DNA of 43,528 bases from a virus. Shown in pieces: positions 16,362 through 26,667 of this stretch. Location of the stretch: positions 1 to 43,528 of IMG/VR virus record IMGVR_UViG_3300037258_000118; one strand, 5' to 3'. The position numbers and the translations under genes are program-made. The notes under the pieces were generated by a model that saw nothing but the letters and a program-made list of their open reading frames with translations, made no database searches and was not told the DNA's origin. The stretch's first letter is position 1; every line of letters begins with the position of its first letter.

Positions 16362-17273
16362 GTGCCAGTTTCGTCTATCACCAGCATGGACGGCCCGCGC
16401 ATCACCTATGACGCGCTGCTGAAGGACCCGCTGATCATCCCGGAACTCATCCTGGACATGACCCAGAACGAGTTCATCATGGACGTGATCTTGAGGAAAG
16501 GCGGGATGACGAATAGCGGTGCCGTCCGCTACTCGGAGTCCACGCCGCTGTACGCCGATGACGTGCCCGAGATCCGGTCGGAGTTCGGCGAGGTGCCCGT
16601 CGTGCCGACCAGCGTCGGCATCCCCCGGGTTGTGTTCACCCATGAGCGCGCCATGGCGGTCAGCGTCTCCGACCAGATGCGGCGCCGCATGATCATGGAC
16701 CCGCTGACCCGGCAGCTCCGCCAGGTCAAGAACACGATGACGTACTCGTGGGAGCAGGCTTTCTTCTCGGCCGTGATCGCCAACGCGGGCATCCAGACCC
16801 TTGCCGTGGGCGCGCCGTGGGCATCGTCCAACGCCACGATCCGGGCGGACATCGCAAATGCCGTGTTTTTGGTCGAGAACGCGTCCGTGCCCAGCAGCCT
16901 CGGATTCACGAGCTTCCTGGGCTTCGAGGCCGACACCATGATCATCGGCACGGGCACCAAGAACACCCTGATCCAGTCGAGCAGCTTCGCCGCCCCGTAC
17001 ATCGGGGACATCGCCAGCGAGAACCTTCAGTACACGGGCGTGCTTCCTAATAAAATCCTCGATCTCGACACTTTGCGGTCAAGGCAGATCCCATCAGGCA
17101 ACGCTTTGGTGCTTATGCGTCAGAGGTGCGGGTTTGTCGCGGATGAGCTGGAATACCAGGCGAGTCCCCTGTACCGGGTCGAGCCGACCAAGTCCATGCG
17201 CAGTGACGTGCAAAGGCAAAGTGCCATCGGGATTGACGAGCCACTTGCATTTGTCCTGCTCAGCGGCATATAA
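16362..17273 (+). CDS. Major capsid protein
   Basis: The 303-residue protein builds the icosahedral shell. Position after protease/scaffold and cement genes, length, and the HK97-like layout support the call: an N-terminal helical segment, RYSESTPLYADDVPEIRSEF, then ERAMAVSVSDQMRRRMIMDP, and a C-terminal strand region with CGFVADELEYQASPLYRVEP. GTG 16362 follows GAGGAG. The last 240 bases use more A/T-ending codons than the rest (for example CCTAATAAAATCCTC). That tract lies next to the HNH gene downstream. Confidence 0.85.
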   Translation: MPVSSITSMDGPRITYDALLKDPLIIPELILDMTQNEFIMDVILRKGGMTNSGAVRYSESTPLYADDVPEIRSEFGEVPVVPTSVGIPRVVFTHERAMAVSVSDQMRRRMIMDPLTRQLRQVKNTMTYSWEQAFFSAVIANAGIQTLAVGAPWASSNATIRADIANAVFLVENASVPSSLGFTSFLGFEADTMIIGTGTKNTLIQSSSFAAPYIGDIASENLQYTGVLPNKILDLDTLRSRQIPSGNALVLMRQRCGFVADELEYQASPLYRVEPTKSMRSDVQRQSAIGIDEPLAFVLLSGI

Positions 17274-17400
17274 TCGAACGTCCGTTCGACGAACGCGGAC
17301 GGACGGACTAGAGGGCGCAATGCACTAGAATGGGGCATGAAAAGGTCCCGGCACCTGATGGCTCAGGTACCGGGACGTGTCAACACCGATTCAGGCGGTG
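17269..17400 (+). promoter_or_regulatory. HNH leader 2: -10-like boxes plus hairpins
   Basis: TATAAT (17269-17274, overlapping the capsid stop, with TTGCAT 18 bases upstream) and TAGAAT (17326-17331) are both possible -10 boxes. A 7-bp repeat, TCGAACG-TC-CGTTCGA (17274-17289), follows the first. The main hairpin pairs 17345-17358 with 17363-17376: GTCCCGG, one mismatch, CACCTGA, loop TGGC. A second hairpin, CACCG (17384-17388) with CGGTG (17396-17400), precedes the chosen start. Its loop and stem hold the only SD-like AGGCGG. Confidence 0.6.
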
Positions 17401-17409
17401 CAACACACC

Positions 17410-18660
17410 ATGCAGGATAACCCTGCCCCCAGGAAACGCGCTCCCCGAGTCTTCGCCCCGCGTACGTGCCAGGACTGCCCGGCTACATACACTCCCGGCA
17501 ACAGCACCTCGTTCCGCTGCCCGGACTGCCAGGCCGCGAAAACCGCGCAAGTCACCCGCGAAGGCAGAGTGCGCGCGCACGCCAAGCGACGGGCTGACCG
17601 CGCAGCCGCACGGCTGGAACGGCCCGGGTGTACCGTCTGCGGATCACCTCTCCGCAAGAGCAATAAGATCGGGCGCTGCGAGGCACATCGCTACGTCATC
17701 GCGGACAGGCCCGGGTGCGGGCACTGCGCGAAGCCGCTGCGACTCGATAACAGGACCGGGTTCTGCCAGGCCCACAAGGGCCTGACATCGCGGACCCCCG
17801 CACGGTTCTGCGCCAGCCGCGCGGGGTGCGACGCCCAGCTCCGGGCGGACAACTCCTCCGGATTCTGCCCGCGTCACATCGGCGAGTCGCCTCAGGCGCG
17901 CGCGATCCGGGACCGCCATAACGCGAAGCTGCGGGAACTGACGCGCCTGCGTCCTGACGAACGCCGGTTCTGCTCGGAACCCAACTGCCTCAACCGGCTG
18001 CGCTCAGACAACACCTCCGGCCGGTGCAGGGCTGCCCGGCATTTCTGCATCCCCGTGGACATGCCGGAGTGCTCGATCGAGGGCTGCACCAACCGGCTGA
18101 CAACGCGCAACGAGACCGGCCGGTGCCGGGAGAAGCATCACGCGAAGTACTGGGTTGCTTCCGTGTGCGGCGGCGAGAACTGCACTCAGGTTCTCCATGC
18201 CGACAACAGGACCGGCTTCTGTCATGAGCACCGCGGGCAGGCTGAAGCGCATCAGGCGTACCTGCGCGCCTACTACCAGAGCCGCAAGGCCGAGTTCCGG
18301 GAGTACGCGCGGAACTGGCGGCTGGCCAACGGCGACGACAGCCGCGCGGCAGCACGCGCCTGGAACCGGGCCAACCCGGAAGCGCGGCAGGCCATGCACG
18401 CCCGGAGGCGCACGCGCGTCAAGGCCGACATGAGCGCGGCCGACCGGCGTGAATCCGTCGAGCGGCGCAAGCAGATCAAGAGTGATCCCTGCTACTACTG
18501 CGGGACCGCCGAGACCTCGGACACGGATCATTTCTTCCCGCTCGCCAAGGGCGGCACGGACCACTGGTGGAACCTCGTTCGCGCCTGTGACCTGTGCAAT
18601 TCCCGCAAGAACGCCACGTGCGGAACGGCATTCATGCTCAGAACCGGCCGCCTGACCTGA
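17410..18660 (+). CDS. HNH endonuclease with a six-unit zinc-knuckle array
   Basis: The 416-residue protein (ATG 17410; GTG 17377 is possible) begins with CQDC...CPDC (residues 20-40). Six repeats follow around residues 74-93, 103-122, 134-156, 188-211, 221-244 and 253-274. Each is a Cys pair, then Leu, then N-x-S/T/E/I-G-x-C-x2/4-H, for example CGHCAKPLRLDNRTGFCQAH. A helical Arg-rich linker leads to a C-terminal HNH nuclease (residues 361-404: CYYCG, DTDHFFPLAKGG, NLVRACDLCNSRK). The zinc units probably recognise DNA. It sits between capsid and connector genes, as a free-standing homing endonuclease would. Confidence 0.82.
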   Translation: MQDNPAPRKRAPRVFAPRTCQDCPATYTPGNSTSFRCPDCQAAKTAQVTREGRVRAHAKRRADRAAARLERPGCTVCGSPLRKSNKIGRCEAHRYVIADRPGCGHCAKPLRLDNRTGFCQAHKGLTSRTPARFCASRAGCDAQLRADNSSGFCPRHIGESPQARAIRDRHNAKLRELTRLRPDERRFCSEPNCLNRLRSDNTSGRCRAARHFCIPVDMPECSIEGCTNRLTTRNETGRCREKHHAKYWVASVCGGENCTQVLHADNRTGFCHEHRGQAEAHQAYLRAYYQSRKAEFREYARNWRLANGDDSRAAARAWNRANPEARQAMHARRRTRVKADMSAADRRESVERRKQIKSDPCYYCGTAETSDTDHFFPLAKGGTDHWWNLVRACDLCNSRKNATCGTAFMLRTGRLT

Positions 18661-18711
18661 CCCGTCCTTCGCGGCGGTGCCGAATTACCCCCCGTCACGA
18701 AGGAGTCAGCC

Positions 18712-19293
18712 ATGCCCGCAGCCGGCCAGAAGACGGCAGAAACGAGCCAGCCCGCACCCGAGGCGACGGCTGAGGCGCGAGACCGGGAAATCGCCGAACT
18801 CCGCGAGGCCGTGCGCCAGCTTCAGTCACCGCCCGGAACGCAGTCAGCGGCGAAGCCGGCCGGGGTGGCCACCCCGAAGGGCTCAAATTGGGAGGCTTTG
18901 ACCAATTTGAGCATCCCGCGCGTCACCGCCCCCGGCGAGGACAAGGCCGCGGACATCGTCCACCGGGGCGACACCGTGTTCCTGACCGACGAGCAGGCGG
19001 CCCGCTTCAATGACCGGCGCCGCCACCGCGTGCCCGTGATCCGGCCGGCGAAGGAGCAGAACGACCCGGCACCGGATGTCAGTGCCCGTGACCTGTTCGG
19101 CGCCCGCCCGAAGGCCCAGCAGCTCGGCGCGCGGCCGGACCCGGCCGGGGCAACGCAGGTCCGCGTCATCGAGGACGCCGACCCGAACGCTCCAGACGCT
19201 CCCGACGACCCCGCTGACCCGAGGAACGCTCCGGAGGGCAAGGACCCGGCAGTAGACCTGAGTACGGACCCGGACGCCAGGAAGGGCAAGTAG
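18712..19293 (+). CDS. Head-region hypothetical protein, Pro/Asp-rich
   Basis: The 193-residue product has an N-terminal helix (RDREIAELREAVRQL) that could form a short coiled coil. A core at residues 85-110 (DIVHRGDTVFLTDEQAARFN) resembles small phage proteins encoded after capsid genes. The C-terminus is acidic, disordered and rich in Pro and Asp. ATG 18712 follows GAAGGAG. Its role is unknown; its place suggests a connector or completion function. Confidence 0.6.
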   Translation: MPAAGQKTAETSQPAPEATAEARDREIAELREAVRQLQSPPGTQSAAKPAGVATPKGSNWEALTNLSIPRVTAPGEDKAADIVHRGDTVFLTDEQAARFNDRRRHRVPVIRPAKEQNDPAPDVSARDLFGARPKAQQLGARPDPAGATQVRVIEDADPNAPDAPDDPADPRNAPEGKDPAVDLSTDPDARKGK

Positions 19294-20032: not shown

Positions 20033-20719
20033 TCAGGCCGCAAGCTTGCGTGCGCGCACCCGGGCCGCACTGTCAATCCGCCGCTGACGCCGGCAGATTT
20101 TGCAGTCACGGCGGGGATTCGGCCTAGCGCTCGTTGGCGGCCGGATGTAGGTGTTCTCCGGCGTGTACTCATGACCTTCTCCGCAGTGGGTCTGATTGAT
20201 GCGCCAGCCCTTGCCGGGACCTGGCACCTTGACCGCAGGTTCGGGCTTGACCGGGACCGGCTCGGAAACGTGCCCCCATGTCATCCCCCGGATGGCGTGG
20301 TGCATAGTCGCCTTGTTAACGCCGAATTCGTCGGCGAGGGATTCCTGCGTCTCGCCCGCCGCATGCCTGATCCTGCATTCGGCAACGATTGCGTCGGTTA
20401 GCTTGGCGATGCCGTGGCGCTCACCCTGGTTGCTGGTGCCGTCGCGGTGCTTGTCAGCGTGGTTCTGCTTGCGCGTGCCGTAGCAGAGCTGAGATGCCCG
20501 GTTGTCTGGCTTGCCGTTCGGGCCGTGGCGGACTTCCTCGCCGGGCGGGCACGGCCCGATGAATGCCTCGGCCACGAGTTGGTGAACTGCCTTGCGCTGA
20601 TTGAAGCCGGGTCGGTAGAGGCCGACGACTTCGTAGCCGTGGACAGTCAGCCACGGCTTGAGGATCTGGCCCTCATGGCCCCGGCGACCCGGACGGCTAT
20701 CGCGCGGCAGGCTGCGCAC
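20033..20719 (-). CDS. NUMOD4-HNH homing endonuclease, antisense, with interrupted N-terminus
   Basis: Read leftward, the protein contains an HNH core (VHQLVAEAFIGPCP, VRHGPNGKPDNRASQLCYGT), an HTH (ECRIRHAAGETQESLADEFG) and a C-terminal module CGEGHEYTPENTY ... CKICRRQRR shared with the gene at 6749. The frame extends upstream to ATG 20800, adding PPERWLPVAD, a stop, then QGFYEVSDLGRVRSLPRD, a clear NUMOD4 domain. The in-frame TGA is at 20753-20755. The 228-residue frame from GTG 20719 lacks half of NUMOD4. It may be decayed, or the TGA may be a sequence error. It is the only HNH gene opposing late transcription. Confidence 0.75.
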   Translation of the reverse strand: MRSLPRDSRPGRRGHEGQILKPWLTVHGYEVVGLYRPGFNQRKAVHQLVAEAFIGPCPPGEEVRHGPNGKPDNRASQLCYGTRKQNHADKHRDGTSNQGERHGIAKLTDAIVAECRIRHAAGETQESLADEFGVNKATMHHAIRGMTWGHVSEPVPVKPEPAVKVPGPGKGWRINQTHCGEGHEYTPENTYIRPPTSARPNPRRDCKICRRQRRIDSAARVRARKLAA

Positions 20720-22262: not shown

Positions 22263-22967
22263 TTGGGCTACGAGACTGACCAGCTAACCCTTGCGACCGC
22301 CCTTACCTGCACGGGCGCGGCCACCCCCGGCGTCCTCACCCCCGGCACGATCACGGCCGGCGGCTCCGACTTCGTGCGCGGCCTGCTGCGGGTCAAGTTC
22401 GCCGCGATCACCACCGCCCCGACGTCGCTGTTCCTGTTCTTCCAGCACCAGGACACCGCTGAGGGCCTGTCTACCTCGTGGTATCCGAACCCGGTTGCGG
22501 CCCAGCTCGCCTCGGTCGTGTCGGCACTGGGCGCCCCGGCTCCTGCTACTCCGGCGGTCCCGGCGACCACGGTGGCGGTGCAGAACCCGAACGCCTACCC
22601 GGTCACCGTGGTGATCACGGGCGGCACGATGACCGCCGTGATCGTCAACAGCATCACGGTCGGCGCCGGTGCGGGGACGTACATCGTCCCGGCGGCCGGG
22701 GCTATCTCCATGACCTTCTCGGGCGCCCCCACCTGGGCGTGGTCGGCTGCGGCCTCTCCCGCTCCGGGGAGCGCGCTGCGTCAGCTCGTCACGGGCGGCG
22801 AGGTGCTGCTTCCCGCCGTCCCGGCGACCACCGACCGGTACTCGGTGCCGTTCGAGGGCTTCCCCGGCAGCACGTTCCGCTTGGCCGTGCTGGCCATCGG
22901 CGCATCGGCGGCGTTCACGCTCACCGTGCAGGCCGACTGCCAGAAGTGGCTGGCCGACAACAGCTAG
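22263..22967 (+). CDS. Beta-rich structural protein
   Basis: The 234-residue protein is made of strands. Residues 1-75 are a jelly-roll-like region (FVRGLLRVKFAAITTAP, SLFLFFQHQDTAEGLSTSWY). A short domain at about 100-160 (VAVQNPNAYPVTVVITGGTM, PTWAWS) is a type I associate with virion decoration and tail proteins. TTG 22263 follows AGGGAG at ten bases. Structural role likely; exact role unknown. Confidence 0.5.
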   Translation: MGYETDQLTLATALTCTGAATPGVLTPGTITAGGSDFVRGLLRVKFAAITTAPTSLFLFFQHQDTAEGLSTSWYPNPVAAQLASVVSALGAPAPATPAVPATTVAVQNPNAYPVTVVITGGTMTAVIVNSITVGAGAGTYIVPAAGAISMTFSGAPTWAWSAAASPAPGSALRQLVTGGEVLLPAVPATTDRYSVPFEGFPGSTFRLAVLAIGASAAFTLTVQADCQKWLADNS

Positions 22968-25803: not shown

Positions 25804-25887
25804 TAGAATGTACGAATTAGGCCCCGGTACCTGGACTCTCCAGAACAGGCACCGGGGCACTTCTGCCGAACCTGATTGAGCAGGAAC
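25804..25887 (+). promoter_or_regulatory. HNH leader 4: TAGAAT plus hairpins
   Basis: TAGAAT (25804-25809), with TTAACC 18 bases upstream, is followed by a hairpin. GCCCCGGT (25821-25828) pairs with ACCGGGGC (25851-25858), and CCTG (25830-25833) pairs with CAGG (25846-25849). A short CCTG/CAGG hairpin around 25872-25885 precedes the ATG, and the ribosome site AGGAAC begins in its 3' arm. The arm GCCCCGGTACCTGG matches the leader-2 stem at 12 of 14 positions. Confidence 0.62.
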
Positions 25888-25893
25888 GACAAC

Positions 25894-26667
25894 ATGATCC
25901 AAGGTACATGCCACCTCGGCGAAGGCGATTGCAGCAAGGCCGGGAAGCTGACGTGCGGCTGGTGCGTCAAGCACTACCAGCGCGTTCGCAAGACGGGCGA
26001 TCCGCAGTCCACCAAGCGCATCAAGGGCGATGACGAGGCCCGTTTCTGGTCCAAGACCGATCGCCGGGGCGACGGCGAATGCTGGCCGTGGACCGGCGGC
26101 ATAGACGCTTTCGGCTACGGGATATTCAGCCATGACGGCCTGATGCGCAAGCCGCACGTGTGGGCTTACGCGCATTTCGTCGGCCCGATGCCAGAGGGAA
26201 CCACCGACCTCGATCACGTCTGCCACACGCGCGTCCCGGAGTGCCACGGCGTCTGCGCGCACCGGAGATGCGTCAACTTCCTCCAGGTGCCCGGCTTCCA
26301 CTTGGAGGCGGTCTCCGATGAGGAGAACAGGCGCCGCGCCCATCTGGGCGTCTCGCGCGATGATGTCATCGGCCTGCACGCCCGCTGGGAGGCAGGCGAG
26401 TACATCGGCATCCTCGCCGCTGAGGCAGGGATCTCAGATAGTGCCCTGCACAAGCGCTTCCGTGAACTGGACGACGAGCCGCGCGACGGACGGCGGGCGA
26501 GCCGGCTTCAGAAGATGACCGACGAAGAGGCCATCGCCCTGCACGTTCGGTTTCTCGCGGGTGAAGGCATCACAGCACTCGCACGGGAGACCGGCTGCGA
26601 CCGGACCTCGATCTACGCCCGGTTCAAGCGCATGCAAGCGGCCGGGGAACTTCCGGAAGCTAGCTGA
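25894..26667 (+). CDS. HNH endonuclease with zinc finger and two HTH modules
   Basis: The 257-residue protein starts at ATG 25894 (TTG 25876 is possible). It has an N-terminal Cys cluster (CHLGEGDCSKAGKLTCGWC, then VKHYQR), an HNH_3 nuclease core (residues 58-125: ECWPWTGGIDAFGYG, TDLDHVCHTRVPECHGVCAH, RRCVNFLQ) and two C-terminal HTH repeats (GILAAEAGISDSALHKRF, ITALARETGCDRTSIYARF). It lies just after the tail-tube gene. A selfish homing role is inferred from family and context. Confidence 0.8.
   Translation: MIQGTCHLGEGDCSKAGKLTCGWCVKHYQRVRKTGDPQSTKRIKGDDEARFWSKTDRRGDGECWPWTGGIDAFGYGIFSHDGLMRKPHVWAYAHFVGPMPEGTTDLDHVCHTRVPECHGVCAHRRCVNFLQVPGFHLEAVSDEENRRRAHLGVSRDDVIGLHARWEAGEYIGILAAEAGISDSALHKRFRELDDEPRDGRRASRLQKMTDEEAIALHVRFLAGEGITALARETGCDRTSIYARFKRMQAAGELPEAS

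What the first reader, a model, noticed from the sequence alone, without database searches (positions are those of the whole stretch)
17410..18660. HNH nuclease with an array of six zinc-knuckle units
Six consecutive 20-25-residue units share a Cys pair, Leu, a conserved Asn, Gly, Cys and usually His. The regular array before an HNH domain resembles a modular DNA reader, with variable residues between the second Cys and the Leu and around the linkers. I do not recognise a named domain for this unit.
Basis: partly seen in the sequence, partly recalled or inferred. Interest (0 to 1): 0.68.

Follow-up and report, generated by a model that had tools for sequence, protein, structure and literature searches.

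The report
Phage homing endonuclease with zinc-finger array
A soil phage carries, right behind its capsid gene, a selfish DNA-cutting gene whose protein has six small zinc fingers in a row, and the gene sits behind a conserved folded RNA leader that turns out to precede many different selfish nuclease genes in phages of actinobacteria.

Summary
In detail: the ORF (likely start ATG 17413, 415 aa) has a C4 zinc ribbon, six CCCH units (C-x2-5-C-x3-L-x4-N-x2-G-x-C-x2-4-H) and a C-terminal HNH domain; shuffles almost never give one unit. The unit is not nameless: relatives score above the Pfam cut-off for CxC6 (PF18721), though the window protein does not.

Comparative evidence makes this a free-standing homing endonuclease gene. 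It lies directly after the major capsid gene in 20 of 74 related phage loci and is missing from 54, with at least 14 gains or losses on the capsid tree; the closest capsid relative (96% identical) lacks it. At the same site the array is joined to HNH or to endonuclease VII, and HNH also occurs without the array. Unit number varies (4, 5, 6, 8), but each position keeps its own sequence, which argues for an ordered reader of a fixed site, not a freely reshuffled code. DNA binding is inferred.

Unexpected result: a -10-like box plus a covarying two-hairpin leader over the ribosome-binding site precedes the gene. The same leader precedes HNH, endonuclease VII and GIY-YIG genes in metagenomic and cultured actinophages; one Bifidobacterium phage shows it before a primase. 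No Rfam family matched.

The parts
16362..17273 (+). major capsid protein gene, the gene directly upstream (context)
   Evidence: phrog_1650 major head protein E 2.5e-63; PF25209
17326..17331 (+). -10-like box TAGAAT in front of the leader
   Evidence: TANANT found 11-25 nt upstream of 31 of 31 leaders, 4.5 expected in shuffles; the generic sigma-70 scan found no full promoter here
17341..17412 (+). two-hairpin leader: hairpin 1 at 17345-17376, hairpin 2 at 17384-17400 enclosing the SD-like GGCGGTG, closed by GTGT/ACAC 17377-17406
   Evidence: fold z-score -3.5; covariation; model R1 E 2e-18 here, but the window is a training sequence
17413..18660 (+). zinc-array HNH homing endonuclease ORF, 415 aa
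17470..17532 (+). N-terminal C4 zinc ribbon (C20, C23, C37, C40)
   Evidence: sequence; alignment A2
17629..17688 (+). zinc unit U1 CTVCGSPLRKSNKIGRCEAH
17716..17775 (+). zinc unit U2 CGHCAKPLRLDNRTGFCQAH
17809..17877 (+). zinc unit U3 CASRAGCDAQLRADNSSGFCPRH
17971..18042 (+). zinc unit U4 CSEPNCLNRLRSDNTSGRCRAARH
18070..18138 (+). zinc unit U5 CSIEGCTNRLTTRNETGRCREKH
18166..18231 (+). zinc unit U6 CGGENCTQVLHADNRTGFCHEH
18232..18480 (+). basic helical linker between array and nuclease
   Evidence: AlphaFold2 model, helices 271-354
18490..18621 (+). HNH nuclease domain
   Evidence: PF14279 E 9e-10, PF01844 E 1e-5; nearest solved structure 4h9d
18661..18712 (+). right flank: similarity to the empty locus L022 resumes here, directly after the HNH stop codon
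   Evidence: blastn window against L022
25817..25896 (+). second, diverged copy of the leader
   Evidence: R1 20.7 bits, E 5.7e-4 in this record, 0.0084 over 69 sources
25894..26667 (+). second endonuclease gene behind that leader, with one CCCH finger
   Evidence: phrog_826 HNH endonuclease E 5e-23; no Pfam HNH hit at E 0.01

Best explanation
A free-standing homing endonuclease gene (HEG) inserted in the gap behind the phage's major capsid gene. The C-terminal HNH domain cuts DNA. The ribbon plus the six CCCH fingers, in two groups of three held apart by a basic helix, bind the flanking target and place the nuclease. The cut is made in a co-infecting relative that lacks the gene, and break repair copies the gene in together with some flanking DNA. 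The gene carries its own expression cassette: a -10 box and a short leader whose second hairpin holds the ribosome-binding site, so translation is probably throttled. Shown here: the domains, presence/absence at one site, the sharp loss of similarity at the end of the capsid gene, the exchange of nuclease domains, ordered conservation of units, and covariation of the leader. Inferred: zinc and DNA binding by the array, the cleavage site, active homing, promoter use, and translational control.
For: Presence/absence: 20 carriers and 54 empty loci, at least 14 changes on the capsid tree; window/L022 and L001/L006 are sister pairs with different content. L022 is 90% identical in DNA over the first 650 nt of the capsid gene, then about 60% over the last ~100 nt, and resumes at 18662 behind the insert, as expected for an imported tract. 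Same site with exchanged effector: L041, L045, L046, L048 carry the array and Endonuclease_7 at E 1e-21 to 1e-23; L006, L035, L037, L038 carry HNH without the array. HNH zinc ligands and the first His are invariant in the alignment. Unit identity by position. Leader covariation: 57 both-side changes against 16.2 in shuffles and at most 9 in slid versions, on an alignment fitted to the model. Precedents: T4 has 12 free-standing HEGs in intergenic regions, segD lies beside capsid gene 23, and several HEGs have the RBS held in a hairpin (PMC2988022).
Against: No cleavage or binding data. AlphaFold2 models have low overall order (pTM 0.29 and 0.39), and the array gives no significant Foldseek match. 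The general loss of conservation at the capsid gene's 3' end in all comparisons weakens the co-conversion reading. Pfam CxC6 is seen in relatives but only at 10 bits in the window protein. The leader also precedes a primase-like gene in one Bifidobacterium phage.
Confidence: 0.76

Rival explanations
1. A modular, reprogrammable DNA reader in which each unit reads a set number of bases and target length scales with unit number (the strong form of the first reader's idea).
For: Unit number differs between relatives at the same site (4, 5, 6, 8); individual units share a fixed frame with variable residues.
Against: Unit identity is tied to position, not shuffled (74 of 79). Proteins with 4-8 units, and even none, sit at the same genomic site, so the site does not track unit number.
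Confidence: 0.1
2. The array is mainly a structural, RNA-binding or protein-binding element, and specificity lies in the HNH domain or the ribbon.
For: CCCH knuckles of this size can bind RNA or protein (general knowledge); L006-type proteins occupy the same gap without the array.
Against: The array is retained when the nuclease domain is exchanged. PMC7641404 notes that cysteine-cluster proteins of the CxC5/CxC6 kind accompany transposable elements and may recognise DNA.
Confidence: 0.15
3. A domesticated nuclease with a phage function (packaging, or interference with co-infecting phages) rather than a selfish gene.
For: HNH genes near structural genes can serve packaging, as in HK97 (discussed in PMC10448857); an intron endonuclease aids competition between phages (PMC11620839, title and abstract only).
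Against: Absent from 54 of 74 loci, including the nearest relative, so it is not needed for the phage. PADLOC matches cover only the HNH domain.
Confidence: 0.12
4. The leader acts as DNA, not RNA: the inverted repeats are an operator or cleavage/recombination site that lets endonuclease cassettes replace one another.
For: It lies at the 5' edge of the mobile unit and is shared by unrelated nucleases, which makes it a natural recombination anchor.
Against: Compensatory G-C to C-G swaps at paired columns keep pairing but change the DNA sequence. Hairpin 2 covers the SD at a set distance from the ATG.
Confidence: 0.2

Closest known systems
T4-type free-standing homing endonucleases (seg/mob; segD and seg43(25) beside capsid gene 23; PMC2988022)
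   Same: Intergenic, beside an essential capsid gene, presence/absence in relatives, and a stable RNA hairpin at the ribosome-binding site.
   Different: Nuclease fold (HNH_5 against GIY-YIG of seg), the targeting module (CCCH array), and the leader: here one alignable family shared by unrelated nucleases; in T4 the hairpins are described gene by gene.
Pfam CxC6 (PF18721), cysteine cluster associated with fungal KDZ transposases
   Same: Tandem short Cys-rich units in a mobile-element protein; relatives L041 (45.5 bits), L070 (44.3) and L046, L048, L003 exceed the 27.5-bit cut-off.
   Different: The window protein itself stays below the cut-off. The model is 66 positions long and each matched stretch covers about half of it or a little more. 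Hosts and nuclease partners differ.
Phage HNH proteins with WRKY19-like CCCH fingers (Zf_WRKY19, PF24906) plus HNH_5, as in L014
   Same: N-terminal run of CCCH fingers, the same HNH_5 domain, the same leader.
   Different: Different finger consensus (C-x4-C...RG.C..HY) and different genomic sites.
I-TevI (zinc finger in the linker between nuclease and DNA-binding domain)
   Same: Zinc finger and long linker place the nuclease on the target (PMC2988022).
   Different: One finger rather than six, GIY-YIG nuclease, intron-encoded.
Start-associated sequences SAS/ESAS of Cluster K mycobacteriophages (PMC3203893)
   Same: Conserved inverted repeat plus an element next to start codons in actinophages.
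   Different: Found in many gene families within one phage cluster, with consensus GGGATAGGAGCCC; the leader here is tied mostly to endonucleases and has another sequence.

Membership tests
free-standing homing endonuclease gene | nuclease domain of a HEG family with catalytic residues kept | tested here: met
   HNH_5/HNH above cut-offs; zinc Cys, His and Asn columns invariant
free-standing homing endonuclease gene | optional gene at a fixed site, with empty alleles in close relatives | tested here: met
   20 present, 54 absent, 14 or more changes; L022 empty at 96% capsid identity
free-standing homing endonuclease gene | no intron or intein around it | tested here: inconclusive
   Capsid stop codon lies upstream and the insert is intergenic; no Rfam match at 17200-18800; splicing not assayed
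free-standing homing endonuclease gene | site-specific cleavage of the allele without the gene, and biased inheritance | not testable with these tools
   needs protein and mixed infections
Pfam CxC6 (PF18721) | score above the gathering cut-off | tested here: inconclusive
   Met in L041, L070, L046, L048, L003; not met in the window protein (10.1 bits; none)
retroviral-type CCHC zinc knuckle | C-x2-C-x4-H-x4-C spacing | tested here: not met
   ligand order is C-C-C-H with about 11-13 residues between the pairs; no zf-CCHC hit
RNA-guided IscB/Cas9 | RuvC plus HNH above the curated cut-off | tested here: not met
   NF040563 23.8 bits against cut-off 175; matched residues are only in HNH
defence nuclease (PtuB, PDC-M01B) | match beyond the HNH domain | tested here: not met
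   the best matches cover only the HNH region, about residues 343-405
RBS-sequestering leader of homing endonucleases | conserved helix that includes the SD | tested here: met
   helix 2 paired in 97.8% of cells, all 4 pairs with both-side changes
RBS-sequestering leader of homing endonucleases | translation repressed by the helix | not testable with these tools
   reporter assay needed

The most novel reading that the evidence does not exclude
Phages of actinobacteria use one family of structured RNA leader, with its own -10 box, as a common expression cassette for homing endonucleases of unrelated folds (HNH_5, HNH_3 with or without AP2 or NUMOD4, endonuclease VII, GIY-YIG). Nuclease and DNA-reading modules are exchanged behind it; the CxC6-like zinc array is one such reading module.
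Probability: 0.6. Interest if true: 0.78.

Novelty: new variant of a known kind. Interest (0 to 1): 0.62.

Why it matters
It gives a set of natural proteins with 4, 5, 6 and 8 zinc units, two kinds of nuclease and one known insertion site, so the question whether short CCCH arrays read DNA in order can be tested directly. The leader would be a searchable signature for homing genes in actinophages, correct start codons (Bauer gp40), flag unannotated ones (GAL1 gp80 in one record, Guacamole gp77), and point to a shared way of keeping selfish nucleases quiet.

Tried and rejected
Array-only searches in cultured phages and plasmids gave no convincing hit. Array and capsid scans of bacterial genomes found no relative, so the host is unknown. 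DNA near-match of 10 kb in cultured phages: none. Rfam on 17200-18800: none. Foldseek on both models: only the HNH domain finds 4h9d, at E 0.016; the array has no match better than E 1.9. Generic promoter scan: none. L070's leader found nothing in cultured phages; hits of GAL1's leader at E near 0.6 lie inside endolysin and tail genes and are taken as chance. A possible deletion scar of an endonuclease VII gene in the empty locus L024 (29 aa, E 0.005) is suggestive only. A decayed leader in L043 (seen by eye) was not counted. Considered and dropped: IscB/Cas9 kinship, defence nuclease, retroviral zinc knuckle.

Full report
Observation. The ORF at 17377-18660 holds an HNH domain at its C terminus (PF14279 E 9e-10, PF01844 E 1e-5) and six CCCH units before it. 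The pattern C-x2-5-C-x3-[LVIMT]-x3-4-[NS]-x1-2-G-x-C-x2-4-H occurs six times in the protein; only 3 of 20,000 shuffles have it even once, and no other six-frame place in the window has it. The conserved start is ATG 17413. A C4 ribbon precedes the array, and a basic linker of about 31 residues that is helical in the model splits it 3 + 3.

Setting. The window is a 43.5-kb virus record. The gene lies between the major capsid gene (phrog_1650) and ORF 18712-19293, which has no family match.

Relatives at the same site. The 80 best capsid-gene loci were fetched (of 173 found) and the next genes mapped. After removal of repeats and of loci without downstream sequence, 20 carry an endonuclease between capsid gene and g18712 (including L047, which has another HNH type) and 54 do not. 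The label needs at least 14 changes on the capsid tree. The window's sister L022 (96% capsid identity) is empty. DNA identity to L022 is about 90% in most of the capsid gene, about 60% in its last ~100 nt, and resumes at 18662, directly after the HNH stop. This is what an imported tract would leave, but the capsid 3' end is also less conserved in other comparisons.

Modules. Four loci at this site (L041, L045, L046, L048) carry the same kind of array joined to Endonuclease_7 (PF02945, E 1e-21 to 1e-23). Four others (L006, L035, L037, L038) carry HNH_5 behind two ribbons and no array. Away from this site the HNH_5 domain is joined to other CCCH fingers (L009, L011, L013, L014, L019, L020), of which L014 matches Zf_WRKY19, and two-unit arrays with an endonuclease VII-like C-terminus (by sequence inspection) occur in L110/L111. 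The array and the nuclease are therefore separable modules.

Array. Unit number is 4 (L048), 5 (L032, L045, L046), 6 (seven proteins including the window), 8 (L070, L078, L091) and 2 in a more distant protein (L005). Outside the ligands, units at the same position are 42% identical between proteins, against 23% for different positions between proteins and 26% within one protein; 74 of 79 units find their nearest unit at the same position. The extra units of the 8-unit forms precede the ribbon and resemble U1 and U2. This is an ordered array with changes at the N-terminal end. Pfam CxC6 is exceeded by five relatives (up to 45.5 bits, cut-off 27.5) but not by the window; so the unit is CxC6-like, and formal membership of the window protein is open. 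Structure predictions are moderate locally (mean pLDDT 78) and poor globally (pTM 0.29 and 0.39), and give no significant fold match for the array.

Leader. All carriers with sequence at hand share a leader before the ATG even where the protein N termini differ. The window leader folds with z-score -3.5. A covariance model was built from 22 leaders; 21 of these come from genes of the capsid-site family and one (L020) from elsewhere. Sequences outside the training set that match well: L047, L058, L009, L013, L014, L019, L130 and L123. Each is followed by an endonuclease gene by sequence or family match, and these differ in domain type. The window has a second, weaker copy at 25817-25896 before an HNH gene of another family (phrog_826 E 5e-23). 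A leader hit in L022's record (L124, E 3.8e-5) has no recognisable gene behind it.

Cultured phages. DNA searches with leaders from L020, GAL1 and Bauer found the element before: Pitbull gp27 and Bauer gp40 (HNH_3; AP2 seen below cut-off), GAL1 gp80 (three ribbons by eye + HNH_5), Asapag gp99 (HNH), Vivi2 gp38 (NUMOD4 + HNH_3, on the strand opposite to its tail-gene neighbours), Guacamole gp77 (MUG113/T5orf172, GIY-YIG type), Rousseau ROUS_22 and ArV2 gp26 (annotated HNH, no Pfam hit at 0.01). The one clear exception is a Prim-Pol gene in Bifidobacterium phage BigBern1; that leader did not reach E 0.001 with the model. Many Gordonia records are near copies, so independent cases number roughly ten. 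In an alignment of 34 leaders, 96.7% of cells pair and 57 cells change on both sides (16.2 in shuffles, at most 9 when slid), helix 2 over the SD included; the alignment was fitted to the model and leans towards it. TANANT lies 11-25 nt upstream of 31 of 31 leaders tested, with 4.5 expected; the cultured-phage leaders were not in that count. No Rfam family matched and text searches found no description; the held library lacks most subscription papers.

Mechanism. The simplest account is a selfish gene that homes into the gap behind the capsid gene, with the array placing the nuclease and the leader limiting expression. T4 offers close precedents for position and for hairpins at the RBS (PMC2988022). 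PMC10448857 reports that phage HEGs cluster near essential genes, capsid genes among them. Cleavage, DNA binding by the array, promoter use and translational control remain to be shown.

Novelty. As a protein: a new variant of a known kind. The shared leader across unrelated endonuclease folds is the more surprising result and deserves its own study.

Noticed in passing
window 25817-26667 (+): Second copy of the leader before another HNH-type endonuclease gene (phrog_826) with one CCCH finger.
   Followed up: partly
window 20033-20719 (-): HNH_3 gene (PF13392 E 1e-8) on the opposite strand to the structural genes; the reading frame of its likely N terminus is interrupted by an in-frame stop, so it looks decayed. 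A TATAAT-like box and two hairpins also lie upstream, too diverged for the model.
   Followed up: partly
window 18661-18711 and L022:5937-5985: Gap before ORF 18712 has a long inverted repeat over that gene's SD (12 pairs in L022), another possible translation-control hairpin.
   Followed up: no
window 22263-22967: Homologues of a part of this ORF (about residues 90-190, weak tail-spike match phrog_11182) recur two or three times behind g18712 in many related phages.
   Followed up: no
L007:3986-4894: The capsid gene of this carrier contig has an in-frame stop codon; sequencing error or decay not resolved.
   Followed up: no
L144 (Arthrobacter phage Bauer gp40): The annotated start lies 135 nt downstream of the ATG that follows the leader; the longer reading frame is open and extends the protein.
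   Followed up: partly
L150 (Gordonia phage Guacamole gp77): Annotated hypothetical, but matches MUG113/T5orf172 (GIY-YIG type) above cut-offs and has the leader.
   Followed up: yes
L149 (Bifidobacterium phage BigBern1): Leader-like element before a Prim-Pol gene, the only clear non-endonuclease case.
   Followed up: partly
L024:3168-3300: Empty locus whose gap may hold the last codons of a lost endonuclease VII-type gene (E 0.005).
   Followed up: partly
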